Source: Paratrimastix pyriformis
Lineage: Eukaryota > Preaxostyla > Paratrimastigidae
Length of the DNA stretch: 64,000 nucleotides
NCBI GenBank assembly: GCA_027972325.1
Contig: JAPMOS010000013.1
Span: forward strand, 578,501 to 642,500
Direction: 5' to 3'
Shown: positions 23,555-64,000 of the stretch, in pieces
Numbering within the stretch: position 1 is the stretch's first letter
Layout: every line of letters begins with the position of its first letter
Position numbers and translations under genes: made by a program
The notes under the pieces: generated by a model
Database searches by the model: none
Seen by the model: only the letters and a program-made list of their open reading frames with translations
What the model was told of the DNA's origin: nothing

Positions 23555-24222
23555 TCACTGGTGCTCGTGGCCTCCACAGCCGCAGCCGCCTCCACAGCCG
23601 CCCTGCTGACGGCCCCCACAGCAGCCGCCTCCACTGGCCTGCTGACGGCCCCCACAGCAGCCGCCCTGCTGGCGCCCCCCACAGCAGCCGCCTCCAAAGT
23701 TCATGCCCATGCCGCCAGGGAAGGGCATTCGGGGCATGGCGCCGCCGCAGCAGCCCCCTTGAGGGGCGAAGGGGAAGGGGAAGCTCTGGCTGGGGTTGGG
23801 GAACCCGCAGCCCGAAGGGCCACATGCCCCGGCCGGGCAGCCGCACCCGCCACCCTGGCAGCCACTTGAGCATCCCCCGCACCCCGCATGGCAGGGCCCG
23901 GAGGCCGCCTCGTCGGTGTCCTCCTCGCTCGGGGTGCGGATCATGGGGGCAAGCAGGTCCCCGAGCTCTTGAGCTGTGGGAAAGTGGCCTGCTTGCTGCT
24001 TGCTAAAGATCTTCAGGTCATCAGCGGTCACGAGAAACTCGCCTGTGACGCCATCCGGATCGGCAACCATAGTAATTTGCTGGTTGGCACCACGCAGCAC
24101 TGCTGGCAATTCTTGGGTCAGACGAATCTATGTGTTATGTACGTCGCATCAGCGCGCCATCGATTCGAGCCGCAGACAAATTTGGCCTCGTAATCGCTGC
24201 AAAACCGAACGACCAACTTCAT
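23555..24222 (-). CDS. SelW/Rdx-fold protein fused to Cys/Gly-rich tail
   Basis: Two exons, 24178-24222 and 23555-24127, encode 205 residues. The 50-nt intron starts GTCTGCG. The first 85 residues follow the selenoprotein W/Rdx pattern: MKLVVRFCSDYEAKF, LTQELPAVL, a GVTGEFLVTADDLKIFSK block and a final helix (TAQELGDLLAPM). Rdx proteins are small thioredoxin-like redox proteins using CxxC or CxxU in the first loop. Here the loop reads FCSDYE, so the second redox residue is missing. The second half is a Gly/Cys-rich tail with repeated CCGG units separated by RQQ, plus CGGCSSGC and a terminal CGGHEHQ. This could bind metal or supply the thiols. The tail's double-Cys units are near-identical at the DNA level, suggesting recent expansion. 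Fold assignment is by pattern only. Confidence 0.6.
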
Positions 24223-24392: not shown

Positions 24393-27300
24393 CTATTTCT
24401 GAGAATTCGCCGGTGGTGTCGGTGTGGGAACTTCGCTCCTGATTGGATCAACAAGTTGGTGCAGCTGCTGTAGGGTCAAGGACTCATACAGGAGCATTGT
24501 CTATCGGATGGAAGTGTTAGGCGATCGAACAATATCAACATCAAACAGACAGAGTCGATGGGGACGGCGTGGTTGGGGCCGAGTTCCATGTTGGGGCTGT
24601 AGACTGCTCCCGTCGAAAAATAGGCCTCCACACGTGGTTGCTGGTTTTGCGGCTTTTCAAACACCTCTGGCGAGCGGGGAAGAGAAGAAGAATGAGAGGT
24701 TGCGCAGCCTGAGGGCTCCGACGGACTGAAGATGAAGTGGGTCATGTAATCGATCTCGCTGATGCTGTCCCTGTCGATGATCGCCTTGGGCCCGGACAGG
24801 AGCAGGACGTTGAGCATGCTGTGCATGTGGGCCTCCGAGGTGAAGTAGAGGGACAGGGACCGAGACGGGGAGAGGCCGGCCTTGTCGATGTCGTCGAGCA
24901 CCGAGCCCAGCAGGGGCCCGGCAATGAGGCTCCCGATCTTGATCTTCTCCTCGTGCGTGATCCCGAACTCTTGGGACCCCACAAGGTCGGCGAAGGGCTG
25001 AAGGGGTGCGAGGCAGGCCGACGCCACGCAGCAGCCATCAACCAGACGACGGGTGGGTGAGTGGGTGCCGATGGCGGCGCGGGAGGGGCCGGACCTTGGC
25101 GAGGAGGCGCAGGGTGTCCAGGGTGCCCAGGGCCGCGGTGCCCTTGGGGACGATGTTGCACTCGATCGCGAACTTGGTGGCGATCTCGTTGGGCGGGGAA
25201 AGTGCGCTGGCCAGTGACAGTGACAGTGACAGTGACAGTGACAGTGACAGTGACAGTGACAGTGACAGTGACAGTGACAGTGACAGCGACAATGACATGA
25301 CAGTGGACAGTGGACGGCGACAGTGACAGCGCGACAGTGACAGGGCGTGCGTGAGTCGAGGCGAGGAGGCGCTGGCGGCGACGGACTGGTGGTGGATGCA
25401 ATCGTAGACGATTCCGTCCCAGAGGTCGGGGATCTTGCTCGTGTCCCATTGGCCTGCCCAACGAGACCGGGAGGAGGGTCAGCCAGGTGCGCCAAGAGGA
25501 GGGGGCGCGGGGCGGACCGGTCTTGGGGTTGTACAGATCGGCCGCCACCTTGGCCCACCGGTGGCGCATCAGGCTCAGGGTCTCCTGCTCGCACATGGCC
25601 ACCTGGTTCTCCCGCTTGGAGTCCAGCTCCTTGATCCAGATCTGCCGCCAGGGGGCCAGGGGGGCATCGAGACGAGAACGTGAGCCGCTGATGCTGGCGC
25701 CGCGTCTGCCCCTTCCCTGCCTTCCCGTCACAGGGCTGCAGACCAGGGTGAGCTCGTAGAGCTTGGTGAGCCGCTGGCCACAGCTGGGCGAGACCTCGGC
25801 GACGTACTGCATGAGCTGGTGCATGTCCCGCTCTGCCAGCGGGCGGCCAGACAAGAGCAGAGGGGACGAGTGTGGAAGAGGGAAAAAGATCCATCGTTTT
25901 TTCTGATTCCGTTCCTGTTCTTTTTCCCCATCCAATTTCATCCCCTTTTCTGAGTGCGTTTGATCAAACATGAGGTCCCACCCGTGTCGAAAAAAAAAAA
26001 AAAAAAGGGGGGGGGGGGGGGGGGGGGGGGGGATCTCGGAGGCGTGACCCCATCCGAGGTCGGGACGGAGCGGGAGGGGGGAGGGGCGGAGGGACCAGAC
26101 CCAGCTCGGTGCGCTGGCTGGCCGGCTTGGTCAGGACGGGGTTGGCGGGTGGCATGGGCAGGAGGGCCTTGGCGCGGGGGTCGCCGGGCGGGAGGGAGGA
26201 GGCCAGGTCGCGGAGGGAGGTGTTCCACGAGGACGAGGGGCTGCTCTGGAGGAGCACGTTGCTCAGGCGGCGCTTCATGTCCTGCAGCAGCACTTGGGCT
26301 GCCGCTGCGCCGCCCCACCATCACGCAGCACGCGAGCCAAAGGACCCGGAGATGGGCAGGGCGGAGATGGGCAGGGACGGAGATGGGCAGGGGCGGAGAT
26401 GGGCAGGGGCGGAGATGGGCAGGGGCGGAGATGGGCAGGGGCGGAGATGGGCAGGGGCGGAGATGGGCAGGGGCGCGGGACACGACAGGCAGCATCGCTG
26501 GCGCGGGACGGACCAGGGGTGTCATTGAGGAGCTCGTGGTCGCGGATGATGAAGTTCTCCGGGAGAGCCGGCACGTTGAACAGGGCCTGCCCAGAGAGAC
26601 GCGGAGTGGGGATGGGGATGGGATGGGGATGGGGATGGGGATGGGGATGGGGATGGGGATGGGGATGGGGATGGGGATGGGGATGGGGATGGGGATGGGG
26701 ATGGGGATGGGGATGGGGATGGGGATGGGGATGGGGATGGGGATGGGGATGGGGATGGGGATGGGGATGGGGATGGGGATGGGGATGGGGATGGGGATGG
26801 GGATGGGGATGGGGATGGGGATGGGGATGGGGATGGGGATGGGGATGGGGATGGGATGGGGATGGGGATGGGGATGGGATGGGGATGGGGATGGGGATGG
26901 GGATGGGGATGGGGATGGGGATGGGGATGGGGATGGGGATGGGGATGGGGATGGGGATGGGGATGGGGATGGGGATGGGGATGGGGATGGGGATGGGGAT
27001 GGGGATGGGGATGGGGATGGGGATGGGGATGGGGATGGGGATGGGGATGGGGATGGGGATGGGGATGGGGATGGGGATGGGGATGGGGATGGGGATGGGG
27101 ATGGGGATGGGGGTGGGGATGGGGATGGGGATGGGGATGGGGATGGGGTGGGGATGGGGATGGGGGTGGGGATGGGGATGGGGATGGGGATGGGGATGGG
27201 GATGGGGATGGGGATGGGGGTGGGGATGGGGATGGGGATGGGGATGGGGATGGGGATGGGGATGGGGGGTGGGGATGGGGATGGGGTGGGGATGGGGATG

Positions 27301-27752
27301 GGGGATGGGGATGGGGATGGGGGTGGGGATGGGGATGGGGGTGGGGATGGGGATGGGGTGGGGCTGCACGCAGATCGCCAGAGCCCAGGGCAGACCTCGG
27401 CGAATGCGGCGGCGCTCCGCTGGACGCGGCGTTCGTTGTTGCTGAAGACCCTTGACATCGGAGAGGAAGGCATTCCGTTCGCTGGGGTGGCGGGGCGGTG
27501 GGACGGTGAGCCCAGGGGCCCGAGCGAGGGGGCAGGGCAGACCTCTTGTCCTTGTTGGGCATGATCAGCTGCCGGAAGAGGCTCCCCATCCGCTTGGCCT
27601 GCTGCACACCGGCGTGGGTCAGGACGCCGCCCTAAGCATACCCCCAACCAGGACAAGCATCATCATCAACGAGGGGCTGCCGGGGCCAGGGGCGGCAGAC
27701 CCATTTGCAGATGACCAACACCGCGCAGCTGCTCCTCGTAAACCTGGCGACA

Positions 27753-27792
<40 letters not shown>

Positions 27793-28326
27793 AGGGAAGG
27801 GAAGGGAAGGGAGGGGAGGGGAGGGGAGGGTGGAGGGAGGGGGGCGTCGTCAGATGATGCGGGCCGAGGGGCACAGATGGCGGACCTCTTCCATGTCGGG
27901 TTCGCCGGCCGTGTCCGGGGCGGCGCCGCCCGAGCCGGCCCCAGACCCGGACCCCGAGACGGAGCCGATGTCGCGGCTCTCCTCGTCCAGCGGCGATGGT
28001 TGGGCATCCTGGGCAGCCCGCTCGTGGCCGGCCCCCTCAGCCGCCACGGGAATGGGCCGCACGACGACCGAGGAGGGCCGCCGCTCGTGGGCGAGGCGTC
28101 CCGCGGGTCGGCCGGGTGCGAAGGGAGCGGCACGGCGGGGCTCGAGGGAGCCGACTGGGCGGAGGCTGCAGGCGTCGCGGCACCGTCGCTATCGGCCATG
28201 GGGCTGGGCTCGGGCGGCGGCTCGGCGAGCTGGGTGGGGGTTTGCCGGGGCCGGCAGACAAGCACCTGGACGGGAGGCGGAGGGAGGTCGAAAGCGATGG
28301 GAAGCGGGCGGGCGGGCGGGCGGGCG

Positions 28327-28370
<44 letters not shown>

Positions 28371-31300
28371 GCGGGCGGGTGGGTGGCGGGCGGCGGGCGG
28401 CGCGTGGCGGGCGGCGCGTGGCGGGCGGCGCGTGGCGGGCGGCGGGTGGCGGGTGGCGGGTGGCGGGTGGCGGGTGGCGGGTGGCGGGTGGAGGGTGGCG
28501 GGTGGCGGGTGGCGGGTGGCGGGTGGCGGGTGGCGGGTGGCGGGCGGCGGGTGGCGGTGGGGGCGGACCTTCTCGGTGCGGAGGACCTTGACCTGGAGCT
28601 TGGTCCCCTGCAACGAGAGCCGCAGCGCGTCGCGGAGGTTGAGCAGGCCCTGGATGCTCTGCTGCTGGCGCTGCTGCATCTTGTCGGCCATCTGGTCCTC
28701 GGCTGCCCCCACGTGATGAGCCCCAACAAAACGGTCTCAGGGCCTGCAAGAAGGCAAGGCAGGTACGGCGCAGGGCTGTGCGTGGGCGATCCACCAGGGC
28801 GTGGCGTGGCGTGACGTGTGCGTGACGTGTGCGTGGCGGACTTTCGGCGGAGTCCTTGGTGGTGGCGCGGAGCTCAGCGATCATGTTGTTGAGCAGCTGG
28901 CCCAGGGCCTCGAACTCGGCGGGGGCGTACTCCTGCTTGAGGGTCAGGTTGCGGGTGCCCTTGAGCAGGTCCCCGAAGAAGGCGATCAGCCGCGGGTCCG
29001 TGACGGCCATCTGGGGTGCCAGGGTGGGTGGGTGGGTGGGTCCACCACGGCAAACAAAGAGCGTCAAGGTCAGGCCCACCCAACCCGATGGGCCCAGCAA
29101 CGATGGGGGACGGTGTGGGACGGTGTGAGACGGGGTGGGGGGACGGGTGGGACCTTCATCTTCTGCTTGGGGGTCCGATCCCCGTGGCGGTACACGGCCA
29201 CGATGCCCTTGAGGACCTCGCCTGCCCACCAGCAGCAGATCCCCGAAACGCACGGAGCGCAGCGTGACCGCCCGCCCGCCCACCAGGGCACAGTGCAGAC
29301 CGGTGCGGGTGGCCAAGGGGTTGACCTTGGTGAAGAGCAGCTTGGGCATCTGCGGGCCCCACAACCCAACACAACCCAACACAACCCAACCCAACCCAAC
29401 CCAAATCAAACCAACCCCGGCGCGAGACGTGATCAGCACGAAGCGGAGCGGTGGGCCGGGAGTCCGAGGGACAGACGAGGGAGTAGCTGATGGCGTCGGC
29501 GATGAGGATGGGTGTGTTGATGGGCAGCGTGTGCATGGGGACCCGCTGGGAGGGGTTGTCCGAGGCGCCGGACGAGACTTGGATGTCGGCGTAGACCTGG
29601 GGAGTGTGTGAGGGATGCCAGGTGGGGTGAGCCGGGTGGGGGGCCTGGCAGCGGACCTCGCCGTACTTGTTCTGGTAGACGTTGATCTGCACGTAGGCCA
29701 TGTAGTTGATCTCGCCCAGGGTGTTGCGCTGGCTGCCCCGGGGGAGCTCGTTCGAGAGGAGCAGGTTGTTGATCAGCCCGTGCAGGATGTTGCCGTCCGC
29801 GAAGTACAGCAGCCTAGGGGCAAACGGACGGGAGGGGCTCATCCAGGAGGGGAGGGGGCACGGGACAGACATGCTGTGGGGAGGGTAGAGGGGCTTGGTG
29901 TCGGCGGGGCACCCTTTGAACGGCGGGGGCCCAACCGAAACAGCCGCAGTCTGAGCCACTGCCGATAAACCAGCAGCAGCAGCAGTGGCGGGAGCGACGG
30001 CGGCGGCAACGGGAGCGGCGGCAACGGGAGCGACGGCGGCGGCAACGGGAGCGGCGGCAACGGGAGCGGCGGCGGCAGCAACGGGAGCGGTAGCGGGTGC
30101 GGGAGAAAGGGCTGCGGTGGTCACGGGCGATGGGGGGGCCACGATCCCCGGGGCGAGAGCCGATTCGGTGATGGCGGCCAGCAGCATGGACTCGGAGGCC
30201 AGGGCCGAGGCGGAGGTCGATGTGGGGCCCGCACACTGGGCCTCCGTGGCGGGGCTCGGGCTTTGGGCGGCCTCGGCCTCGGGCCGGCAGCGGACGGGCA
30301 TCGGGGTCGGGGTGGAGAGCGGGGACGGGGACAGCGGAAGGGGCGTGGGGGTGCACACGGAAATCGAGTTGGGGGTGGCCACCGAGCTGGGGGGCGGGGG
30401 GAAGATGGCCGGTTCGCCGATCTTGAGGGCCGCGCCCGGCTGGGGCGCTTGCTCAGGGAGGGGCGTCTCGCGGGAGACCTCGGGCGAGTCCGAGCGGAAC
30501 TCCTCGCGCATGTGGGTGAAGCAAGCTACGAGGGGCGGGCCATGGGGAGAGAGGAGCATGATGGTTGACAGGCTATGCGTGGCCACGGGGAGAGACAGAC
30601 GGGGCTGCTTGGTGGCCATGGCGGTGATGTCGTCGATGATCTGGCGGAGCAGGGGCCCCGAGAGCAGGTCGCTGATGTGCAGCTTCTCGTGGGGCATGAT
30701 GCCGTACTCCTGGGGGACCGCCAGGTCGGCCAGCGGCTGCAGGGTGGAGAACATCTGGTCGAGGATCTCCCGCAGCTCGGCCGAGAAGGCGTACCGGTTG
30801 TGGACTATGTCGAACTTGAGCGCCTCGTAGATGTCGGGGATCCACGTCTGCACGCACGTGCGGAGGGCAACGAGGTGATGTGCGGCCGGCTGGGGGGCCG
30901 AGTGGGGGACGGACGGTGTCGTAGTTTGAGGTCTGCTCGTCGTAGAAGTCGGTGAGGAACTTCTGCCAGCGCATCTGCACCAGGGGCAGGTTCTCGCCGC
31001 AGCAGAAGGGCTCCGAGCCGCCGCAACGGGCGAAGGGCCGCTCGACGTCCTTCTGGTAGCTGGCCTCCAGGGGGGCGCTCTCGACCCGCCCGGGGGTGGA
31101 GACCTCCCGCTCGAGGGCACCCGGCCCGGTGGGCGGCGTGGCCGAGGCCGGGGCGACCGCGGCCGGGGAGGGGCCGCTCTCCGAGGAGGTGGGCCTGGGC
31201 ATCGCCTGCCGGCTGGCGGCGGCGGCGGCAACGCGGGCGGTGGGCGGGAGGGTTGGAGGGGACCCAGGCCGTGAATCTGCGCGCCCCGAGGCGCCGGGAA

Positions 31301-34300
31301 GCCGGGAAGAGCTCCTGTTGGCAGCCTCGGCGCTCCCCAAAATGGTCTCTGCGCAGCGCCGTGAGGAGGGAGCAGGCAGCGCGTGAGCCGGTCGAGGCAA
31401 TGGGTGGCCACCCGGGGGGCGAGAGCAAGGGCGCGCGATTGGATTGGGGTGAGGGGATGGGCGGACCGGCCAAGGGACCCGGGGCAGTGACGTCGGTCGT
31501 CAGGGTCAGCGGAGAGGCCCGCCGACCCGCCCCTCCGGCCACCGAATAGGGGGACGGGGCCCGCGGCGCCGAGGAGGCTGTCAGGACCGCCGTGGTGGCG
31601 ATGGGCACGGAGGTGGGCAGGGCCAGAGATGGAGGGGGAATGGGCGGCGCAGAGGCGACGAGGGCGGGGCTGATGTACTCGTGCGACGAGGGGCGCGGGA
31701 TCGGGGGCAGGGGTGCGCGGGGGTCCTCGAGGCCGGCGCCCACGTCGACGTAGCTGCTGCTGACGTCGTGGGGCGAGCCGGAGGAGGAGCTGGAGCTGTG
31801 CCGGTGGGTGAGATGGATGTGCAGGTGGGGGGGCAGCGCCGAGACGGGGATGTGCGTGGGCGGGGCCAGCGAGCTCGGGAGGCTGGTCGCGAGGGGCGCC
31901 TCCGAGTCATCCCGTTCGGCGGGCGGCGCCTGCAGCAACATCGCGCGATCACAGAGACGTTCGCCAGAACGGGCGAGCAGGACGCCGGGTACATCAGCGA
32001 CGATGGGGTGTGTGGAGGGGAGGGAGGGAGGGAGGGAGGAAGGGAAGGAGGGAGGAGGATGGGACGGACGCCCAATGGACTCCCGTCGTCCGCGGCGGTG
32101 GCCGGCAGATCAGGGGGCGGCTGGGCCAGCGGGAGGGCCGAGGACATGGAGGGGCTCTGGGTGGCGAGGTCGCAGAAGGGGACCTCCTTGTCGGGGATGG
32201 CCATCCCGGGGCCCAGCATCGTGGGCAGCGAGGAGACCGCCACAAAGAGCGGGTCACTGTTCGACTCGAACAGGCCGCCCGCCTTGGCCCCGTCGGTTGC
32301 CCCCGGGGTGGGGATGGAGTCCGCCGGGACGGCGCTGACCGGTCCGACGGGCGGGGAGGGCGGCAGGGCCGAGGCGGACGATGAGCTGGGGCGCGGGCTT
32401 TGGCTTTCGTCGCCAGGCGGTTTGGTCGGGGCGGCGCTCGACGGCGCCAGGGCGGGTCCCGCTCCGGGCGGCGGTGGGGCTCCCTCCTGGCGGGGAGGAG
32501 GGGCCATGCTGGCCATGGTCATGGCGGCCAGGGCCCCAGTGGGCAGGGTGCTCGAGCGGTGGTGGAGGAAGAGGCCGTGGCCGTGGTGGTGGTGGGCCTG
32601 GGGCTGCTGCAGGGTCCCGGGCTCGTACTGGTGCTGCGGGGACTCGGGGGTGGCGGACGAGGCGAGGTTCTTGGGCTTGCGGATCTTGGTCGTGGTGGCG
32701 GTCGGGTGGAGCTCCTTGTAGCGGGCCTTGTGGTACCCGTGGGCGTGGATCCAGTGGAGCCGCTGCCGGCCCGGGTCGGAGTCGTCCTGCTCGTGGGGCT
32801 GCCCGGCCGCCGTGCCCTCCATGGGATCGCCCTCGTCGGAGAGGTTGTTCCAGGGGGCCTCGTGGCCCTCGCTTTCCTCGTTGCTGGGCGGCTGCTGCTG
32901 CCCGCCGGTGGACGGTTGCCGCGTGGGGGGCGAGGCGGCCTGGTGGGGCATCTGGGACCCCGAGCTCGGGCCCGGCAGAGGGCGGGGGGGAAGGACGCCG
33001 TCCTCGGGCATGTGGCGCACGTTGCTGCCCGACCGGCGGCGGCTCTTGATGGCGTTGGCGAGGGCGCCGATGTGCGGGGTCCCCGCGATGGACAGCTCGG
33101 TGGCCTGGCGGAGGGTGGCCTGGGCCTTGTTCAGGGTGTGCATGAACTTCTCGTAGGTGTTCCCGGGCATGGCGGCCGAGCCCGTGTAGAAGGGGTTGCC
33201 GAAGATCCCGTTGGGGGTGGGCGTGATCAGGGGCAGCCGAAGCGGGTCCATCAGGGGCAGCGTCGGGGCGGGCGACGGCACGGCGGGCGCATCGCCGTCG
33301 CCCAGGGTGGCCGCGACGGCCCGTGCGGGCGAGGTCCACCCGCGGCCCAGGCGGTGGAAGGTGACCGGCGTGACCTGGATGACGGCGGCCGTGGGGGGTG
33401 TCGGCACGCGCCGCGCGGCCTCGGCCAAGAAGTCGGGCTCTTCCTCGGTGTCATGGGCGGGGGCGGGGGAGGGCGCCCCCACAATCCGCACGGAGGTCTG
33501 CGGGGACGGGGACCGGGACGGGCCGCCCGAATGGGTCTCGTCGTGGGTCACGGGGGCCCGGACCACCGTGGCGGCAGCGTAGGCGATGGCCAGGGCACTG
33601 GCGACCGCTGCGGCTGCGGCCTGGCTCTGCTGCAAGGGAGAGTTGGACGGGGCCGAGGAGGCGATCGGGACGGCTGGCTGTTTGAGGGGGCTCACCGGCG
33701 CGGCGGGGTGGCCGAATGGGACCGCGCCCGTCGGACCCGTCCCGAGGGCCAAGGACGGCTCGGAGGTCGATGCCGAGACGACGCTGATCGGGGAGATCTC
33801 CTCGGTGAGGGCCGCCTGGCGGGCCTTGAGGTTCTGCTCCTCGACCTGGTGCTCGTAGTGGATCTGCATCTCCTTGGTGAACCGGTCCATGAGCCCCTTG
33901 AACTTCTTGACGATCAGCGAGGCGTTGCCCAGCCGGCGGAGGCCCAGCGACTGCAGGACGGAGATGTGCGGGGCCACGAAGACCTCCCCGTTGAAGGACC
34001 GGTTGGCCAGGATGACGTTCTCGAGGCGCCGCTGGCACATGACCATCCGCGAGCGGATCGACTCCCAGGTGGGCGTCATGAGCAGCTCGGTCTCGGGGTG
34101 CCACCCCAAGGCGGGCATGGGCCCCGCCCCCAGGGAGGGCGGAAGGCGGTCATCGCCGGTCGGGGGCGCGTCCAGCAGGCCCTCAATGAAGGCGATCGCT
34201 GAGCGCTGGACGGAGCGCTCGTGGTTGGTGTAGACGTGAAGGTGGCTCAGGAAACTTTGCCGGGTCCTGTACACGGGGGGTGGGGGTGGGGGTGGGGTGG

Positions 34301-37300
34301 GGGGGGGGGGGGGGGGGGGGGGGGGGGGCGGATGGAGAGGATCGGTTGACCATGGACAAGACCCAGAGCGTGGCGCCAAGAGATGGGAGGGAGCGCGGGG
34401 GGACAGACTCTTCGTCCTTGGGGAGGACATTGAGGCGGAAGTGCTTGCCCAGGGTGTGCGACTGGGAGAGGCCCGCGTGCGTCAGAACCCCTAGGGGACG
34501 TCATGCCAACGTCAAAAAAAATCGGTCAGACGACCGGGAGCTGGGAGAGGCCCGACGGACCGCCCCACTTGCATTGGAGCAGAGCGGCGATCACGCGGCC
34601 GTCGGCGTTGCGCTTGAGGGGCCTGATCTGGAGCTTGGTCCCGTGGAGGTGCAGCTCGAGCACCGAGCGGAGCAGCATCAGGTTCTGGATGTACTTCGGG
34701 TCGAAGAACAGCGGGAGCGGCGACCCCGGGGCCAGCCCGTCGGTCGCGGGGGGCATCTGGAGGCCCGACCCGACCCAAGGGGGAGCGTTTCGGTTGGTGG
34801 GAGGGCCGAAGGGGGCAGCCACTCAGACCTCCGACAAGACCCGGCGCAGAGCCGCATTATCGGCGAGCCCCGCGGCCACGGGAAAGGAGCCCACGGAGGC
34901 GCTGGTGCCGAGGTTTGGGGGCGATTGGTGATCGGACACCGAGCTGTCCGACGAGTCGCCGGACGTGGCCGGGATCGGCGGGATGGGGATGGGCGGGGTG
35001 ATGGTCGAGGCAGCGGTGGAGGGTTTGCCGTCCCGTGACTTGGGCCCACCGGCCGGGCCCGGGGCCTCTGCCGAACGGGGGGTCAGCGCGCCTCCAAACG
35101 GGAACGCACGGACCGGCGACGCCCACCGTGGACGTGGAGGGTTTCTTGTCGAGCGAGGCGGCCGACGAGGAGACCGGCATGCAGAGCGGCGGGAGGGAGG
35201 AGGAGCCCGAGATGGAGCGGAGCACGTCGACCCGCTCCTGGATGATCCGGCAGAGCAGGTCCGAGAGCGCCATGAACCGCTCGGGGCAGTTGTGCCGCAC
35301 GATGAAGAGCGGCTCGTCGTCGTAGTGGTTCTGGGTCCCGGGGAAGCGGATGGGTTTGGCGGTGAGCGGGGCGGGGGCGGGGTTAAGGCAGGGCGGGGCA
35401 GACCTTCCTGTAGTCGGACTGGTTGAGCTCCTCGAAGAAGTCCAGCAGGGGCATGTCGTCGTGGATGTGGATGCGGATCTTCTGCTTGGGGGTGATGTCC
35501 CCATGCCGGAAGATCCCCATCACCTGTCGGAGCACCTCTCCTTCGCGCGAGATGGCCGGGACCGGCGGGGCGGCCTTGCGGCAGGCGGCCTGCAGCATGA
35601 TGTTCCTGAGCAGGCGGCTGCAGTGGGTGTAGTACTGCGTGTCCCCCTTGACGAAGCTCCACCCGTTGACGTCACACACCATGGTCTGGCCCATGTGCCG
35701 CAGGAGATCCAGCCCGCACACGCGCTGGCGGAAGACCCGGCCAACGATGGAGCAGTAGTTGCGCTCGTCTTCGGTGAGGGTGGTCACTTCGCGCATCTGG
35801 GGAGGGAGGGGGAGTGAAGGCCACGATCACGATCGGGGTGCGAGCAAACCTCCTTCCCGTTCGCGTCGCGCTCGACGACGCCGTCGACCGTGGGGCTCTT
35901 CCGAAGCTCGGCGTAGACGTAATCGGGCAGCACTGTGTAGACTTTGACATCCTTGCGGTCGTCCACACTGTCCCGTCGCGCGCCCAGAGCCCCAGGAATT
36001 GGCGAAGAAGGGAAGAGGGCAAGGGGACGAGGCGAATTGGCGGCCTACCAACGGACGGGATGAACTCCTCGTAGATGTACGACTTGGTGCTGTTGGCCGG
36101 ATCGGCCCCGCGGGTCCGAATGATCCCTGGCACAAACTCGCTGCTCCGGTTCTCAACCTGTGTCCAGGTCAGGGATCGTGTGGCAGGGGGTGATGAGGCA
36201 GGCGGGTCGCAGGATGGTGTGCGCGTCGGAAGAAAGAAGGGTCGGTGAAAGGGACGACCTTACGGAAGAGCCGCCGCACGCCAAAGCCTTGGGCTTGGCT
36301 GTAGTAGACGTAGATGTTATGGTCCTCGCTGTAGACGGGCTTCTCCACTGGAATCGAACAAGTCGAGGGTGAGTCGAGGGTGAGGGTGAGTCGAGGGTGA
36401 GGTGAGTCGAGGGTGAGCCGAGGGTGAGTCGAGGGTGAGGGTGAGCCGAGGGTGAGCCGAGGGTGAGATGGTGAGTCGAGAGTGAGTCGAGGGTGAGTCG
36501 AGTGAGTCGAGGGTGAGGGCTCACTGACCGAACGGCTTCTCGAGACGCTTCCCATCGATAACGATGTAGTCATCGCCTTCTTCCACTCGAGAAACCGGGC
36601 CTGCTCTCGGGTCGCTGCCGAGACCGAGGAAGATGTTGGAGAACGGCTCGAGAGGAGCCAGACCGGTTCAGGTAGATGTACCGCGGGATGGGCACTCCGT
36701 TTTGCTGCAACGTTTGGTAGATCCGATGTCGGTTGAAGAGCGTTTCCTAGGGAACGGGCGCGTCGCGTCGGGGATGCACAGGGGCCACAAACCTGCTCGG
36801 TCAGCTCGTTGATACAAAAGATCTTGTTCAGCTTCACATATTCAAGCGCTTTCTTGAACGGAAAGCCTTTGCTGCGGGGACCATCGTGCAGAGTGACAGG
36901 AAGATGTGGATGTGGAGTGGGTGCGGGCGGGGGATGCATGGAGTGGAGGGATTGCGTGCTGGAAGGATAAAGACCTGTAGAACGTGATCAAGACGTCAAC
37001 GACTGGCCAATCTTGGATGGACTTGTTCAGAATCATATCGTCAGAAAAGCATTTGACAGTAACATCTCCATGCTCCTTGATGCGATTTAGAATTTCCTGG
37101 TGGGACAACGAGCGGTGGATGAACATCCGATGCGGGCGCCCCAAACCTGCATGGGTTTGCTGTTGGCTTTGCTCTCCATCACACAAACACCGAGGACGAC
37201 CCCGTCCGTCACAAGATTCTTGTGAAAAAGTGCCACGGTCTTAAAACTGAGGAATCTAACAGACAGGTCTTTTCAATGGAGGGTGAGGTGGTGGCGGGAG

Positions 37301-37336
37301 TGGCCCACCTGGCTGGTGCGATAACTTTGCCCCCAT
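24393..37336 (-). CDS. PPIP5K: Giant PPIP5K (Vip1) inositol pyrophosphate kinase with two phosphatase modules
   Basis: PPIP5K makes and breaks inositol pyrophosphates (InsP7/InsP8). The first ATG, 37334-37336, is a best guess that keeps phase through a GTTATCG intron; 37179 is the next ATG. The kinase half is intact: [85 protein letters not shown] and [12 protein letters not shown]. Phosphatase module 1 starts [10 protein letters not shown] (about 35480-35509) and has [36 protein letters not shown] and [15 protein letters not shown]. It also has a long disordered insert (about 31400-33850), and ends [13 protein letters not shown]. Module 2 starts [12 protein letters not shown] (29161-29190) and has [39 protein letters not shown] and [13 protein letters not shown]. 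It ends [16 protein letters not shown] before TAG 24393-24395. A GTCTGTC intron joins the modules in phase (...AISYSL to MPKLLFTKV), so this is one gene of roughly 2,800 residues. More than twenty introns fit family alignment. Confidence 0.9.
25197..25290. repeat. CAGTGA hexamer array in PPIP5K intron
   Basis: About fourteen CAGTGA units between the VYDCIHH and PPNEIATKF exons of PPIP5K module 2. Confidence 0.88.
26340..26480. repeat. GGAGATGGGCAGGGGC 16-mer array
   Basis: About eight copies of a 16-base unit inside the PPIP5K intron between the ELLNDTP and VLLQDMKR exons. Confidence 0.85.
26607..27361. repeat. GGGGAT hexamer satellite, about 750 bp, in a PPIP5K intron
   Basis: More than one hundred GGGGAT units with occasional GGGGTGGGGAT variants. 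They lie inside one intron (sense donor GTCTGCC near 27397, acceptor near 26594) between the [12 protein letters not shown] and [12 protein letters not shown] exons. The sense transcript would contain an ATCCCC repeat. The long Ser-Pro, Ile-Pro and His-Pro open frames here are artefacts. Confidence 0.93.
27757..27831. repeat. Poly-G run followed by GGGAA/GGGGA units
   Basis: An uninterrupted G run of about 35 bases, then GGGAA-type pentamers. They sit in the PPIP5K intron just upstream (sense) of the VLVICKW exon, giving a C/T-rich tract near the acceptor. Confidence 0.85.
28308..28560. repeat. GGGTGGC/GGGCGG degenerate array
   Basis: Degenerate 7-10-bp G-rich units in the PPIP5K intron with donor GTCCGCC (near 28566) and acceptor before VLVCRPRQ. 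Confidence 0.85.
34301..34328. repeat. Poly-G run in PPIP5K intron
   Basis: A G run of about 28 bases in the intron between [12 protein letters not shown] and [13 protein letters not shown]. Its donor GTCTGTC and acceptor CAG keep frame. Confidence 0.85.
36358..36515. repeat. GTCGAGGGTGA minisatellite in PPIP5K intron
   Basis: Imperfect 11-bp units (about a dozen) within the intron splitting LEKPF from [10 protein letters not shown] in the kinase half. Confidence 0.88.
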
Positions 37337-37442: not shown

Positions 37443-38735
37443 ATGTCTCAGGCCCTTCAGGATTTTCTTCACCATGATTTTACGCATGTCTGTTTTGCAT
37501 TTCTCGGGCTCCGACGCACATGCGCTCCCCTGTAGGATTCGAAGTGGAACGCCTATTTCGCCAATATTTATATTGCAGCAGATGCAAATCAAAAAACCGC
37601 TCTCGACCGAATTCAACGGCGCTGGTACAAGGCGAACGTAAATCCGGCATTCGATGTGAACGAAACACTCCCTGCCCCTGCGTCCAGTATCCCGTCGGCC
37701 GCCCCGCGTGCCGCTCCGTCTACACCGGCTGCAACTTCGGCGCCCCCCCCTCCCCGTCAACAGAATCCGCCGGAAACTCCCCGCGATTATGCTCACCCCT
37801 ACACCGCAGGATCACCCCGCGAGCAGGCCATGCAATTGGTCCACTTCATTCTGAATTTCCTGACAGTCGTATTTGCCTTGGTATTCCTGTTCACCAACAA
37901 CGCCAAAGGCTATCGGTTCTGCCTCCTCTCAGCCGCGGTCCTCTTCTCGATGCTCCTGTTTGATGCCATTGGGGTCTGTCTCGATGTGCAAGAGCCCATT
38001 CGTATGTTCCGTCTCTGTGTTCCGCTTCGCTCACTTTGCATTGGGGTCGGGCCGCCGCAGTTGCCCCGGTTGAAGCTGGACTACCTCCAGCGGGTGCTGA
38101 CCAACACCAACGGGCAGTACCTGGTGCACACGCTGATCTTCCTGCCGGGCGCCCCGCTCATCTGTCTGTGTCGTCCATCGCACCGTCCCCCATGACGCCC
38201 ACCCGCAGTCGCCCTTCTGCCGGTTGTCATGTGCGCCGCCGTCAACGTGGCCGGGCCGGCCTTCATCTACATCGCCTCGGTCGTGCCTGCCGTGGATCGG
38301 TCCGCGCCCGGCCCTTACACGGTCGGGCCTCAACGATGGCGGCCATTCCTGTTTCCTGTAGGCACGCGGAGGCCTTCCACCGGACGATGGCCCGGATGCA
38401 GATGGGCATCCTGAAGATGAACGCCCAGCTGGAGATCGTCACCATCCTCGCCCTCGGGGCCCGGTCCGCGGGCCCGGCAGACCCACGGACACATCGCGCT
38501 CACCCCTCTCCTTCCTTGCCCTCGCAGCCGCTCGATCGTGGTCGCCGTCGCCTACGCCCAGCTGACCATGATCAAGTATCACGTCAACCCCCACACCCGG
38601 GCCCTCTGGAATTCGGTGGGCCTTTGGGTGGACCGGCTGGCGGCCCGGTGCCCGCGCCCCATCGAGATGGTCATCCGCAAGGCACGCGGCTTCTTCACCC
38701 GCCTGGTTGCCCCCGCCCCCAGGCCGGCCGCCTGA
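37443..38735 (+). CDS. TMEM33: TMEM33/Pom33-family multipass ER membrane protein
   Basis: Exon 1 (37443-37487) encodes MSQALQDFLHHDFTH. It joins in phase across a 48-nt GTCTGTT intron to DSKWNAYFANIYIAAD and IQRRWYKANVNPAF. This matches the N-terminal pattern of plant-type TMEM33 proteins. A Pro/Ala-rich linker is followed by hydrophobic helices (LVHFILNFLTVVFALVFLF, FCLLSAAVLFSMLLFDAIG). A GTCTGTC intron (about 37976-38060) leads to LDYLQRVLTNTNGQYLVHTL. Later exons give ALLPVVMCAAVNVAGPAFIY, FHRTMARMQMGILKMNAQLE and SIVVAVAYAQLTMIKYHVNP, ending at TGA 38733-38735. The HTRALWNSVGLWVD and FFTRLVAP C-terminal segments also fit the family. Members shape ER tubules and help nuclear pore insertion. 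Four or so membrane segments are visible. Confidence 0.82.
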
Positions 38736-38852: not shown

Positions 38853-41800
38853 ATGTCAGAAGGAGTTTCTCCCCTTCGGGGTTGGAGTTCCAGGCCTTTT
38901 TTTCATTTCGCCACGCAACAGCAACCCTTTTTGGAGACGCTTCTTCTTCGGTGTCTTGCCGAAGATGATGTGTTACTCCCGATTGATCTGTCCGCCTTGA
39001 AAGCCCGTGTGGCTCCTCTGCAGCCCGATGATGCATTGCTCACTGTCCTCGAAGTTTTGAAAAAGAGAGGCGTTGTCCAACTCGAGACCATTGCGCTCGG
39101 AAATGGTGAAAATCGTACGGTCATTCTTGATTGTGATCGTTCGCGGCTTCTTCGGTCGATCTCACCATCCCACCTCACGAAGCGGCCCCGGTTGGAGAGG
39201 CCCTCGCCCGAGACTGGTCTGCTATTGGGCTTGCCCGTTCCATCGGACTGTATTTCGGGGCAGGACTTGCTCCCTCCGAGGAGCGCGACCTGCAGGCCCG
39301 CCTGGCCCAGCCCAGCGCCCGGACGGCCCAGGTCCTGGCCCAGGTCCGCTCCCTCCCCCCGGCCCCGGCCCATGTCCCACGCCTTCGCACTCAACCCCAC
39401 CCTGGATGGTAGTTCCGCTCGGCTCGGGCCCGATTTCGGCCCTTCTGCGATGCCGGCACCTGGGAGGAGTGCCGCAAGACCCGCCGCCCGGGGGCCCCGC
39501 CCTGCCAGAAGGTCGGCCTCCCCCTCCCCCCCTCCCCTCCCCTCCCCTCCCCCGCTTCGCGGCTCTCGGGACCCCGCATCCATGGCCTGACATCACCGTT
39601 GGGGGCCTCCGGCTGTGTGCGTGTGGGCGTGTCTGTGGGGCCGGTGCAGCTGCACTTCCGTGGGCTGGTCTTCGGGCACACGGACCCCTCGATGGGCGAC
39701 TGCAGCTTCCTGGACACGTGCCGCCACATGAGCAGCTGCAAGTTCGTCCACTACGCCATCGACGAGGCCGCCCCGGCCCCCGCACGGCCCCTGCCCCCGC
39801 CCGCCCTCGTCGAGCCGCCCCCCACGGTCGGCCCGCGCACCCTTCTGCCCCTGCCCCTGCCACGGCCACGGTGGCCCCCATGATGTGACCCGTGCGTCGG
39901 TGACGGTTGGGCTGTGCAGCTGGGCCCTGCGCAGTGGATCAACTGCGACATCCGCACCTTCGACATGTCCGTCCTGGGCAAGTTCGCCGTCATCATGGCC
40001 GACCCGCCCTGGGACATCCACATGGACGTCCGCACGCCCCGACCCACGCCATCCTCGCATTCCTCCCGGCCTGCCCCGGCCCCTTCCCATGCCCTTGGGG
40101 CCTGCCCGTTCCTTCCCCCATGCCCACGGGCCTGGGCTGGCGGCCAGTGCGGTGGGGCCGGGGCCGATCGGCTGACCGGGGCATGCGGCGCGGGTGGATG
40201 TTTCCTGGCGCTGGGGGGGGGGGGGGGGGGGGGGGGCAGCTGCCCTACGGGACGATGACCGACGAGGCGATGCTGGGGCTGGCCGTGGGCCGGCTGCAGG
40301 ACGAGGGGCTGCTCTTCCTCTGGGTCACCGGCAGGGCCATGGAGCTTGGCCGCAGGTGCCTCGTCCAGTGGGGGTCCGCGCCCCTCGCCCGCCACGCCGC
40401 CAGGCCCCACTCGGTTCACCCCTTCCCTCCATCACTGCCTCACGGGTTGCTGCCCCTTGCAGGTACCGGCGGGTGGACGAGATCGTGTGGGTCAAGACCA
40501 ACCAGCTCCAGCGCATCATCCGCACCGGTCAGCAACCCCGCCCCACCCCGCGCCGCCTCCCGCCTCCCCGCGCACACACCGCGCATCCGTCGCGGTTTCT
40601 GTCTGTCTGTCTGGGCGGCTGTCTGTCTGGGCGGCTGTCTGTCTGGGTGTCTGCCTCTCTGTTTCTGCGCCCATCCGTCTGGGTGTCTCTCTGCCCCTCC
40701 CTCCGGCTCGGGCTCGGGCTCTCCTCTGGGCCCGCGGTGGCCCTGGGCGTCTCTCCGGCGCGGCTGCAGGGCGGACGGGGCACTGGCTGAACCACAGCAA
40801 GGAGCACTGCCTGGTGGGGGTCAAGGGCAGCCCGGCCGGCTTCCGCGGCATCGACTGCGACCTGATCGTTTCCGAGGTCCCGCCCCCCGCACCGCCGTCC
40901 CCCGCCCTCCGTCCCTCGGCCTCGGCCTCGGCCGGCCTCCAGACCGCCCGGCTGCCGGCCTCCTGACCGCCCGTCCCCACGCCCCCTCTGCCCGCCACCC
41001 GTGCCGTGGCGGCCTTGGTGGGGGGCGCACGCAGGTGCGGGAGACGAGCCGCAAGCCGGACGAGATCTACGACATGATCGACCGCCTCTGCCCTGGCACC
41101 CGCAGGCTCGGTCCGGTGCCCCGCCCGCCCGCCCCGCCCGCCCGCCCGCCCCGCCCCGCCCCGCCCCGCCCGCCCGCCCGCCCCGCCCCGCCCCGCCCCG
41201 CCCCGCCCCGCCCCGCCCCGCCCCGCCCGCCCCGCCCCGCCCCGCCCCACCTATCTCTCCCTCCCGCGCCCACCCAGCTGCCGCCCTGCTCACCCGCCTG
41301 ACCGACTGAACGCCTGCTGGCGCGTGGTTTGGGGCGGGGGCCGCAGAGCTCTTCGGGCGGCGGCACAACGTGCACCCGGGCTGGGTGACCCTGGGCAACC
41401 AGCTCGAGTGCACCGCCATCCAGGAGGCGCCCCTGCTGGAGGCTTACCGGCGCCGCTACCCCGCCGGGGCGGGGGTCCCTCCGGCCGGCCCACACGAGCC
41501 CACCGACGACGGGCCCGCCCCGGCCGCCCCGGCGGCGACCGTTCTGGTGCCCCTCGGCCCAGCCGCACCGGAGGCGCCCCCCCCGGCAGCCACCTCATCC
41601 GCATCCCCGGGGGCATCCCCAGGGGCACCCCCGGCGACACCCGCATCCACAGGGGCACCCGACGCCCAGCCCCCCGTGGCAACTCAGGCCTTCGAGTGCC
41701 AGCCCGGAGCCGATGCCCACCTCACGGGGGCCGGGGACGATCCAGGGCCCTCCGACATGGCCACCGACATGGCCACCGACATGGCCACCGACATGGCCAC

Positions 41801-53915: not shown

Positions 53916-56253
<2,338 letters not shown>

Positions 56254-56479
56254 CCTTGCTACTGCTGCTGCTATTGTTGCTGCGGCTGCTCCGGCTCGAA
56301 CCCGTGCCTGTGTCCGCTTCGTGAAAGCTGCTGCTGCTGTGGCCGCAGCCAAAGCCCCTGCCCCGGTCCCTGCTCCTGCTCCTGTTCCTGCCCCAGCTGC
56401 TCCAGCTGTCCCGCTCCCGCCCCTTGCGCCCATGTCCCTGTCCCCGCCCCTGCTGCCGTCCCTGCTGCCGCTGCTGCCG

Positions 56480-61391
<4,912 letters not shown>

Positions 61392-61413
61392 TGTGTGTGT
61401 GTGTGTGTGTGTG

Positions 61414-61740
61414 GGGACTTTCCGGAATATGAGAGAAAGTTCCTATGTGACCGGCTTAGGCAGGGCCTTGCCCAACAGTGTACTGGTCGCCCAGCTTGGC
61501 CCCAAGGCCGAGAAGTTCTTCCACCTGGTGGGCGAGGCGCACCGCAAGGCCGAGCGGACCTTCAACCGCTCCTTCTGGCTGGCTCGCATTGACGCCACGC
61601 TGGCGCGCTGGGGTGCGGCGCTCGAGGAGACCTGGGCCAGGACGCCACCGCCCACCACAAGAGCACGGGCCTGGCATGCTTCAACGTGGCTCTCGACCAG
61701 CACAAGATGGCGAGCGACCCCAACGCCAAGATGGGCTAAA
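61414..61740 (+). pseudogene. Coding-like fragment of unknown origin
   Basis: Protein-like text is spread over more than one frame. DFPEYERKFLCDRLRQGLA is followed in another frame by LGPKAEKFFHLVGEAHRKAE and WLARIDATLARWGAALEE, then in a third by HHKSTGLACFNVALDQHKMA, ending in TAA 61737-61739. The codon use resembles local exons. The frame changes and position beside the retroelement suggest a broken gene piece, or exons whose introns I could not place. Confidence 0.3.
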
Positions 61741-62019
61741 ACGGTGAGTGGGGTAAAACCTTCTTTTGTCCCTTTTCTTGAAATGAATCCTCTTCTTTTC
61801 CTTTGTATCGTTCTCCTCTTCTCTTTCTCTCTCACTCTCTTTCTTTCTTCCCCCCCCCCCCCCCCCCCCCCCCTCGTTCTTCTCCGGCAATTGCCCCATT
61901 GTCCCCGGGCCAACACGTTTTTCCCCCTTTCCCCCGTTCCAAAAAGCAGACTTTGACAGACAGAAATAGCCACTACAACCCCCCGGTTAACCATTATTCA
62001 GTTAAGAGGTTTTGCGAAA
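61741..62019. other. Intergenic region with poly-C run
   Basis: T/C-rich sequence with a C run (61851-61873) upstream of the four-helix membrane protein. It probably includes that gene's promoter and leader; no element recognised. Confidence 0.4.
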
Positions 62020-63283
62020 ATGCCTGCTTTGGTCGACGACAAGAAATCAAAGATTGTTGCAGCTTTGTTGTGGTGCATCATTTTCCCGGGATCTCTGATT
62101 GTGATCCTCTACTTTGTCTGGAATTCTTGTTTGTTTGTTTGGAGTTCACACCTGTTTCTTGTTTGGGCCCTAGGTTCAAATGCTCGTTGGCTCTGCCGCT
62201 GCGGGTAAAGTGGGTGCGATTTCTGATAAAATTGTCACCAACGATACAGCTTCCGATCTCGGGGTGCAGAAGGGGAGAAGTCTGCGCGCATCCAATGACA
62301 CTTACGACCGTTTTGGTTTGTATTTAGTGGCCGAAATTGCTCATGTCTCGAGCGCTGTCGCTGTTTTCGCTCTCCTGATCGATTTGACCCTCCTCTTCAT
62401 CTTCCTGCCGTACATCAAGGTCCTAGAATGCCTTGTATTTGCTCCCCTCTGTTTTGCGCTTGCCGTTTTCTGTTTGATGGCATTATGTTGGTGGACTTTC
62501 CCGACCGCTACATGAGCTACTTTCCTGACTGACAAACTAGCTCATCATTTCCCTTCTTTCTTTCCCTCTCCAGAACTTCTGGTCCCGTTGCCCCACCGTG
62601 AAGAAGTGGTGCCACTGGATTTGTCTCGGCTTGATCGGTCTGTGTCTTCTTTCGGGTTGGCTCACCCTTTCTTTCTTCACGCAGCGATTTTCGGTGTCGG
62701 TTATTTGGTGTGCAACATTTATCAAATGGCCGTTGTTTTCGCGAAGAATATCAGCACTTGGAGCCAGGTCAGTTGCTCTTGTTTCCATCACCATTGGCTC
62801 ATTTTTTGGTTTTGTAGTGGTCCACCGATCTCTCGGCGTATCCGACTGCTTGCGCCGTTGCCAACCTCTTCATCACGTTGCTCATCTTCATCTTCATTCT
62901 CACCCCTGGCTTCTTCTTCCTCTACTTCAAGGTGTGCCCTCCCCCTTACCTCCGCCTTAGTCAACCACCCTTCTTCAGGTGCACTTCTTCTATGCTCTGA
63001 TGAAACGCTGGACTGACAAGAGCGCCGTTCTGGGGAAGGTCGGTTCTTTACTTCTTCTTCGAGCGCTCATTTCTTCTTGATTTAGGTCGCCACTGCGGCC
63101 TCGAACGCCCCGTACCTCTCTGGTTCTGCTGCCCTCGGTGCTCCGATCTCCGCAAATCCCGCGGCTGCCCCCCCTGCGTCAACTGGTTTGTCCCTCTCCT
63201 CCTTGATGTCGGCTCATCCCATTCCTAACCCCGACACAGGCAACCCCTTCAGCGAGCCCAGTGCTGCCGGCTCTGCAGTGTAA
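62020..63283 (+). CDS. Four-helix membrane protein with C-terminal NPF motif
   Basis: Eight exons: 62020-62115, 62174-62419, 62574-62637, 62685-62767, 62818-62931, 62979-63038, 63086-63185 and 63240-63283. They give 807 nt, 268 residues. Seven introns of 47-154 nt have donors GTCTGGA, GTCCTAG, GTCTGTG, GTCAGTT, GTGTGCC, GTCGGTT and GTTTGTC. Membrane segments: IVAALLWCIIFPGSLIVILY, AVFALLIDLTLLFIFLPYI, WICLGLIAIFGVGYLVCNIY and LFITLLIFIFILTPGFFFLY. The soluble loop after helix 1 has GKVGAISDKIV and a possible N-glycosylation site (NDT). The tail is Ala/Ser/Pro-rich with GNPFSEPS near the end. An NPF tripeptide is a common endocytic EH-domain ligand, as in SCAMP proteins, but the helices do not clearly match SCAMP. 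Family unassigned. Confidence 0.75.
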
Positions 63284-63506
63284 GCGTAGGCGTGTTCGAT
63301 GGCGTCGCCACCACAATAACTTGCGACGCCCTTCTGTTTTCTTTTGGGAGCCGGCCTTTTTTTTGGGGGGGTGGGTGGTTGATTTTGCGCACCAAGAAAA
63401 GTTTGGACCGCTTTCTTTCTCCGAACCGAGAACCGGGCCGGGTCACTGGGCTCACTGCCCGCGGTTGATCAGCCCGAAGACACCCTTTTTCCCCCCTTGC
63501 CTCTCA
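63284..63506. other. Short tandem intergenic gap
   Basis: 223 bp between two plus-strand genes, with a T-run and G-run near 63357-63367. Nothing else identified. Confidence 0.4.
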
Positions 63507-64000
63507 ATGCTCGCTGTGGAAGTTCTTCGCGCTGTCGATCTTGTGAACGTCGATACCGATGGCACTGTCTCAGATCCCTTTGCCACGGTCACCTTTGGTG
63601 CCAAGACCGAGAACACGCTTGTTGTTGAAGATTCCCTCGTCTGCCAGCTCTCCTTTATTTAACTTGATGAACATTTTTTTTGTTGCAGTGCCCAGAGTGG
63701 AACGAAACGTTCTATTTTCCGATCGCACTTCCTCCATCTGGAGAGATTCAAGTTGCGGTCGTGGATGACTCACGGCACTCCCTTGGCCAGGCGGTTGTTC
63801 CGATCTCCGCCCTTCAAATTGGCGCCCGCACCGAGATCGAGTGCCCCCTCCAGGGTGTGAGGAGTGGCCGCATCACTCTGGGCCTGAGGGTACTCGAGAA
63901 ACTGACCGAGGAAGCCGAGGGTTTGCTCCGCGCTCGATTTCCCTCTTGGTTGGATTATGGATGGCTTTGTAGTGGTCGAGCGGGACGTCGCCGAGGAAGG
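63507..64000 (+). CDS. C2-domain protein, 3' part beyond right edge
   Basis: Starts MLAVEVLRAVDLVNVDTDG at 63507, the first strands of a C2 domain, with SDPFATVTFG next. A 50-nt intron (63639-63688, donor GTCTGCC) joins to CPEWNETFYFPIALPPSGEI and VAVVDDSRHSLGQAVVPISA. The Asp residues typical of calcium sites are seen (D in NVDTDG and SDPF, then VVDD). This suggests calcium-dependent lipid binding is possible, although the final loop needs the rest of the gene. A second intron (63921-63972, donor GTTTGCT) leads to VVERDVAEE at the edge. The full domain set cannot be judged. Confidence 0.78.

What the first reader, a model, noticed from the sequence alone, without database searches (positions are those of the whole stretch)
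24393..37336. PPIP5K with tandem phosphatase modules, the first apparently catalytically dead
One open splice chain runs from the ATP-grasp kinase through two histidine-acid-phosphatase-like modules. The junction [14 protein letters not shown] is joined in phase by a GTCTGTC intron. Module 1 has [10 protein letters not shown] (catalytic second Arg replaced by Ile, about 35480-35509) and ADGNILHG where the family has a SE.HVH-type motif. Module 2 keeps [12 protein letters not shown] (29161-29190) and TSEAHMHS. Known PPIP5Ks have a single phosphatase domain. A pseudo-phosphatase between kinase and active phosphatase could act as a regulator or scaffold.
Basis: partly seen in the sequence, partly recalled or inferred. 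Interest (0 to 1): 0.85.

Follow-up and report, generated by a model that had tools for sequence, protein, structure and literature searches.

The report
Enzyme with a dead twin domain
A free-living anaerobic protist has a phosphate-signalling enzyme that carries two copies of its phosphatase part, the first with a broken active site, and distant relatives share the same layout, so the dead copy probably does a regulatory or structural job.

Summary
On the minus strand (37212 to 24393) one gene codes for a PPIP5K kinase followed by two PPIP5K-type phosphatase modules. Module 1 reads RHGDI instead of RHxxR; module 2 keeps RHGDR. The contig is from Paratrimastix pyriformis, whose deposited protein P0122 also spans both modules. 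One flaw: the frame slips by one nucleotide near 27450 in module 2.

New here: the layout is shared. Carpediemonas membranifera (two paralogues), Blattamonas nauphoetae and one metagenomic protein have it, and a cut protein, P0124, fits; their kinases form one clade with the window's (96/95). First modules lack an intact RHxxR in 6 of 6 cases; second modules keep it in 5 of 5, single-phosphatase homologues in 221 of 221 aligned. Five of six first modules keep the hinge and the zinc ligands their sequence covers. I read module 1 as an old pseudophosphatase kept for regulation or structure. Against certainty: one shared duplication is favoured but not proven, and nothing was assayed. New variant of a known kind; only the best-ranked database matches were examined.

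The parts
35560..37212 (-). Kinase part (PPIP5K2_N plus ATP-grasp), exons 1-9 of the model; start codon upstream of 37212 not located
   Evidence: PF18086 at 2e-12 on one raw ORF; no other PF18086 locus matched in the genome; PDB 3t7a at 1.1e-88 (first model); exon chain
29323..35541 (-). Phosphatase module 1 (pseudophosphatase), exons 9-21, with long low-complexity stretches (about 35204-34715, 33806-31068 and 30496-29879, introns included)
   Evidence: Own HMM 114 and 132 bits; 9grn at 1.1e-20; coordinates
35494..35508 (-). RHGDI: altered RHxxR motif of module 1 (Ile codon ATC at 35496-35494)
34206..34226 (-). NHERSVQ: Ser where the 191 canonical rows and all five module 2 copies have Arg
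29777..29800 (-). ADGNILHG, counterpart of the SExH segment; its histidine position is not catalytic in yeast Vip1
   Evidence: PMC11836120
29350..29476 (-). Junction intron between module 1 and module 2 (127 nt, GTCTGT...GCAG)
   Evidence: residues across the junction align with homologues
24393..29221 (-). Phosphatase module 2 (intact RHxxR), exons 22-38, stop codon at the end
   Evidence: Own HMM 344 bits; His_Phos_2; 9grn at 4.8e-34
29154..29189 (-). [12 protein letters not shown], intact catalytic motif of module 2
27420..27465 (-). Segment [15 protein letters not shown] across which the reading frame slips by one nucleotide
   Evidence: homologues read this segment without a break

Best explanation
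This is one PPIP5K gene of Paratrimastix pyriformis coding for kinase, pseudophosphatase and active phosphatase in one chain. The kinase should make 1,5-InsP8 from 5-InsP7 and module 2 should remove the 1-beta-phosphate again (both from the family, not tested here). Module 1 is an old duplicate of the phosphatase that lost its catalytic loop but probably keeps its fold. It most likely acts without catalysis: as a structural spacer and regulator between the two opposed activities, and in P. pyriformis possibly as a ligand-holding site, because several basic residues that capture InsP8 in yeast Vip1 are still there. Shown: gene anatomy, architecture, broken and intact motifs, shared occurrence in Metamonada. 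Inferred: inactivity, ligand binding, regulation.
Against: No activity, binding or transcript data. The window's module 1 keeps His548 and Arg547, so low activity is possible. Ligand residues 623, 625 and 627 are not kept in Carpediemonas, P0124 or Blattamonas first modules, so ligand binding cannot be the common function. Zn ligands are a poor yardstick: the active second modules of Carpediemonas and P0209 lack most of them. Module 1 diverges faster than module 2 (70.0 against 92.2% between the Carpediemonas paralogues), and the window's module 1 is by raw identity nearer to its own module 2 (34.1%) than to the first modules of Blattamonas (29.9%) or Carpediemonas (30.7%). Both modules of P0209 fall outside the module groups, on long branches. 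Without P0209 the support is weak for one module 1 clade (71/48) and one module 2 clade (49/62), the long branches of the window's and Blattamonas module 1 meet, and AU tests do not reject separate duplications (p 0.322, 0.127, 0.114).
Confidence: 0.7

Rival explanations
1. Two neighbouring genes: kinase plus module 1, and a separate phosphatase starting at MPKLLF.
For: Module 2 is preceded by an ATG at 29349; no cDNA was seen.
Against: The reading frame of module 1 runs on without a stop to 29156, into module 2. The deposited protein spans both. Carpediemonas and Blattamonas proteins carry both in one chain, and their residues across the junction align with the spliced product.
Confidence: 0.04
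2. Module 1 is still a phosphatase, weak or with another substrate.
For: His548, Arg547, Asp550 and most basic residues checked are kept in the window's module 1; E991A raised activity in yeast Vip1 (PMC11836120), so loss of Glu there need not hurt.
Against: R551A greatly lowers ScVip1 activity (PMC11836120); here Arg551 is Ile and the ERRV Arg is Ser. In the five other first modules the nucleophile itself is Tyr (3), Ser (1) or Pro (1).
Confidence: 0.12
3. Module 1 is a decaying relic or passive linker without selected function.
For: Faster divergence than module 2, long low-complexity inserts, very divergent copy in P0209.
Against: Kept in frame in Fornicata, Preaxostyla and a metagenomic lineage; hinge kept in 6 of 6 and covered Zn ligands in 5 of 6 first modules; predicted fold kept in P0124. 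No substitution-rate test was made.
Confidence: 0.15
4. Module 2 is itself broken in this organism by the frame slip near 27450, so neither module works.
For: One-nucleotide slip inside a conserved strand.
Against: The exons on both sides read in frame with consensus splice sites to the stop codon, and the only PPIP5K locus that matched in the genome would be lost; an assembly error or unusual splice is more likely.
Confidence: 0.06

Closest known systems
PPIP5K / Vip1 / Asp1 / VIH (kinase plus one phosphatase)
   Same: PPIP5K2_N and ATP-grasp kinase, phosphatase with RHxxR of the Vip1 type; a GAF-type insert is expected between RHxxR and KWGG but was not tested in the window's own modules
   Different: A second, catalytically altered phosphatase module lies between kinase and active phosphatase
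Receptor tyrosine phosphatases with active D1 and inactive D2 domain
   Same: Tandem phosphatase domains of one family, one of them a pseudophosphatase; in PTPRK it recruits a substrate (titles and starts of abstracts of PMC9640194 and PMC7320164 seen)
   Different: Other enzyme family and chemistry (recalled); here the dead copy comes first and a kinase is in the same chain
[quoted passage not shown]
   Same: Opposed kinase and histidine phosphatase in one chain; compared with PPIP5K in PMC11836120 (section 15 read)
   Different: One phosphatase domain (recalled)

Membership tests
PPIP5K family | N-terminal PPIP5K2_N (PF18086) and ATP-grasp kinase | tested here: met
   PF18086 2e-12; 3t7a 1.1e-88 over residues 5-309 of the query
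PPIP5K family | C-terminal phosphatase of the Vip1 type with RHxxR | tested here: met
   Module 2: RHGDR, 9grn 4.8e-34
PPIP5K family | Makes and removes 1,5-InsP8 | not testable with these tools
Usual PPIP5K layout (one kinase, one phosphatase) | Exactly one phosphatase module | tested here: not met
   Two modules. Customary rather than defining: PMC8024741 writes 'usually possesses' a dual-domain structure (passage seen)
Catalytic histidine acid phosphatases (module 1) | RHxxR loop | tested here: not met
   RHGDI in the window
Vip1-type phosphatase fold (module 1) | Same fold as ScVip1 phosphatase domain | tested here: inconclusive
   Sequence match for the window; a model only for the relative P0124, whose first module lacks its C-terminal part and whose alignment held single-phosphatase relatives too
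Tandem PPIP5K of Metamonada (proposed here) | Kinase, module 1 with broken RHxxR, module 2 with intact RHxxR, kinases one clade | tested here: met
   P0124 is cut before module 2; the hosts of P0124 and P0209 are unnamed

The most novel reading that the evidence does not exclude
Module 1 is a built-in receptor: it binds 1,5-InsP8 or phosphate without hydrolysing it and sets the balance between kinase and active phosphatase from inside the enzyme. It arose once, in a common ancestor of Preaxostyla and Fornicata, near the base of Metamonada, and would be, as far as the searches listed here show, the first pseudophosphatase in the inositol pyrophosphate pathway.
Probability: 0.27. Interest if true: 0.78.

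Novelty: new variant of a known kind. Interest (0 to 1): 0.6.

Why it matters
How PPIP5Ks balance making and destroying 1,5-InsP8 is not settled. A lineage that carries a dead copy of the phosphatase between the two activities is a natural experiment: module 1 separates binding and regulating roles of this fold from its catalysis, and the compact Carpediemonas proteins (1456 and 1508 aa) make it testable. It may also mark a shared character of Metamonada, and it corrects a deposited P. pyriformis protein that lacks most of its kinase. No paper describing it was found in these full-text searches: 'inositol pyrophosphate' with 'metamonad' (0 papers); PPIP5K with pseudophosphatase (0); histidine acid phosphatase with pseudoenzyme (0); PPIP5K with phosphatase domain, tandem and duplicat (6, titles and abstract starts seen); PPIP5K structure terms (41, of which 20 listed); 'inositol pyrophosphate' with Giardia (6, listing seen, passages of PMC8024741 read); metamonad names in combination (20 of 1605 listed). 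The library holds open-licence PMC papers only.

Tried and rejected
Two-gene reading: rejected for the reasons under the rivals. First gene model: four introns had odd acceptors (ccgag, gcaag, gcgag, acgag). Other consensus sites, two of them as in the deposited protein P0122, removed all four; only the slip near 27450 remained. Start codon: candidate first exons enumerated, none convincing. Pollicipes P0123 as a further tandem PPIP5K: set aside, because its kinase segment is repeated too and the second phosphatase part lacks RHxxR, which looks like a gene-model or assembly duplication. Bacterial promoter scan of the junction: not informative for a eukaryote. Second protein search with module 1 of P0002: only the two Carpediemonas proteins. 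Rfam and tRNA scans of the window: nothing. The window's own modules were not folded: by its description the tool takes sequences that the DNA gives letter for letter, which I took to leave out a spliced protein, and I did not try it. Other His_Phos_2 matches in the genome were not identified.

Full report
What was checked. The region is read on the minus strand. Exons were joined by hand, guided by homologues and by splice consensus, and revised once. The revised model has 36 introns: donors GTCT 15, GTCC 15, GTTT 3, GTCG 2, GTCA 1; acceptors CAG 30, TAG 6. Since sites were picked partly by this rule, the regularity is supportive but not independent. The product is 2711 residues from 37212 to 24393 and lacks its first codons. 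In one place, near 27450 in module 2, the frame slips by one nucleotide. Homologues read the same segment without a break, so it is probably coding; an assembly error, an unusual splice and a true frame break cannot be told apart here.

Which organism. A profile search found P0122, named Paratrimastix pyriformis, 2521 aa, on a contig of 769527 bases. The window's contig G000:C35 has the same length, and P0122 aligns to the model at 96.9% over 2531 columns with one mismatch, the rest being gaps. P0122 starts at MREVTT, so it lacks most of the kinase; it keeps part of the junction intron and differs at the frame slip. It is one protein across both modules, though a gene prediction and not a transcript.

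What the parts are. The kinase matches human PPIP5K2 (3t7a, 1.1e-88). A PPIP5K2_N search of the genome gave two matches, both exons of this gene. Module 2 matches the yeast Vip1 phosphatase crystals at 4.8e-34. Module 1, with its linkers left out, matches the same three chains and no others at E up to 1, best 1.1e-20. Both are relatives of the same domain over its length.

Relatives. Three protein searches reported 929, 2 and 2479 matches. I saw the best 120, 2 and 120, which are 230 different proteins. Of these 230, six show the phosphatase profile twice: P0001 Blattamonas nauphoetae, P0002 and P0121 Carpediemonas membranifera, P0122 the window's own, P0209 from a metagenome, and P0123 Pollicipes. 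P0123 looks like an artefact because its kinase is repeated as well. P0124, listed under NCBI without a name, has kinase and a Carpediemonas-like first module and ends there. Matches below rank 120 were not examined.

Active sites. Leaving seven proteins aside (those six and P0124), 223 remain; 221 align at the site and all 221 have RHxxR; P0107 and P0116 do not align there. First modules: window RHxxI, Carpediemonas RYxxR twice, P0124 RYxxR, P0209 RSxxR, Blattamonas SPxxR, which only the MAFFT alignment covers. Second modules: five of five RHxxR. So the six first modules show four different states of a broken loop. In yeast Vip1, alanine for Arg547, His548 or Arg551 greatly reduces hydrolysis, and the histidine of the SExH segment is not in the active site (PMC11836120, sections 8, 11 and 15 read; other passages seen). 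The broken loop is therefore the sound argument for inactivity and ADGNILHG is not. The Arg of ERRV, Ser in the window's module 1, is taken here as the counterpart of EcAppA Arg92; that equation is mine.

What module 1 keeps. Positions named in PMC11836120 were mapped by alignment. The window's module 1 has all four zinc ligands (H, C, H, H), the hinge (P553, G646, G647), and K554, K556, R558, K623, Q625, R627, K644. Several of these serve InsP8 capture in yeast; the paper writes Lys557 where my count gives 556, and its Glu576, Lys605, Lys732 and Lys817 were not mapped. The hinge is kept in 6 of 6 first modules. The zinc ligands are kept in 5 of 6 where the sequence covers them; P0209 has one of four. 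Against weight on this: the second modules of Carpediemonas keep only one of the four zinc ligands and that of P0209 none, and P0209 also has Asp for G646. Positions 623, 625 and 627 are not kept in the Carpediemonas, P0124 and Blattamonas first modules. The canonical counts come from 191 of 223 rows picked by a motif, so its RHxDR columns are conserved by construction; the count free of that choice is that.

When it arose. In the kinase tree of 32 rows the five tandem proteins and P0124 form one side of a branch (96/95). In the phosphatase tree of 35 rows (three more were skipped for lack of the motif), first modules group and second modules group, each with the window beside Blattamonas and Carpediemonas apart (84/70 for five first modules, 90/79 for four second modules, 91/91 for both together), but the two modules of P0209 fall outside on long branches. 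Without P0209 and with five single rows fewer (28 rows) the support is 71/48 and 49/62, while metamonad modules against single ones reach 99/99. The program warns that the long branches of the window's and Blattamonas first modules meet. Holding the modules of one lineage together is not rejected (p 0.322 Preaxostyla, 0.127 Fornicata with P0124, 0.114 window alone). By raw identity the window's module 1 is nearer to its own module 2 (34.1%) than to the first modules of Blattamonas (29.9%) and Carpediemonas (30.7%). One duplication before the split is the simplest reading and is not proven.

One gene or two. The frame of module 1 is open down to 29156, inside module 2. In the spliced product, [16 protein letters not shown] runs alongside DCIKLPVLRNLFNRL of Carpediemonas and DCIRPDDIIEKFINRN of Blattamonas. 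This homology across the junction is the best evidence for the splice.

How it likely works. The genome has SPX matches on four contigs and IPK family matches on two (not examined further), so makers and readers of inositol pyrophosphates are likely present. The kinase should raise and module 2 lower 1,5-InsP8. Module 1 sits between them, cannot be a normal phosphatase, and probably keeps its fold. Regulation or structural support is the best guess; ligand holding is possible for P. pyriformis and less so for the others. A parallel for a dead copy beside an active phosphatase is the D2 domain of receptor tyrosine phosphatases (PMC9640194 and PMC7320164, titles and starts of abstracts seen).

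Verdict. Observation confirmed with three corrections; interpretation partly supported and extended. New variant of a known kind.

Noticed in passing
window 37536-38735, + strand: TMEM33/Pom33-like gene, divergent from the PPIP5K gene (one of two ORFs over the Pfam cut-off); it bounds the space for the missing start codon.
   Followed up: partly
window 23555-24127, - strand: Rdx family match just downstream (23.0 bits, cut-off 22.6), with a Cys/Gly-rich tail.
   Followed up: partly
window 39413-40258, + strand: ORFs with DPPW recall the MT-A70/METTL3 methyltransferase motif; label recalled, one ORF scanned in Pfam without a match.
   Followed up: partly
window 26587-27395: 809-nt intron inside module 2 made mostly of CCCCAT repeats; other introns hold long poly-C, CACTGT and CGCCACC repeats.
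   Followed up: no
window 24393-37212: Intron starts are strongly biased: 30 of 36 begin GTCC or GTCT.
   Followed up: partly
window 54001-64000: Strong negative AT skew (to -0.85) in the last 10 kb, pointing to T-rich tracts on the + strand.
   Followed up: no
G000 contigs C452, C2, C175, C234, C112: Other His_Phos_2 matches in the genome, one with an internal TAG; not identified.
   Followed up: no
P0001 (Blattamonas nauphoetae, 3258 aa): A phospholipase B domain follows module 2, after a hydrophobic stretch like a signal peptide; perhaps two genes merged in annotation.
   Followed up: no
P0002 and P0121 (Carpediemonas membranifera): Two tandem paralogues: module 1 70.0% and module 2 92.2% identical, with identical stretches from the end of module 1 on; gene conversion is possible.
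   Followed up: partly
P0002, P0121 and P0209 second modules: The active-looking second modules lack most zinc ligands that the first modules of Carpediemonas keep.
   Followed up: no
P0122 (deposited P. pyriformis protein): The deposited model lacks most of the kinase and carries intron sequence at the module junction.
   Followed up: yes
P0209 (metagenome, 1897 aa): Very divergent tandem PPIP5K with RSGDR in module 1; its host is unknown.
   Followed up: partly
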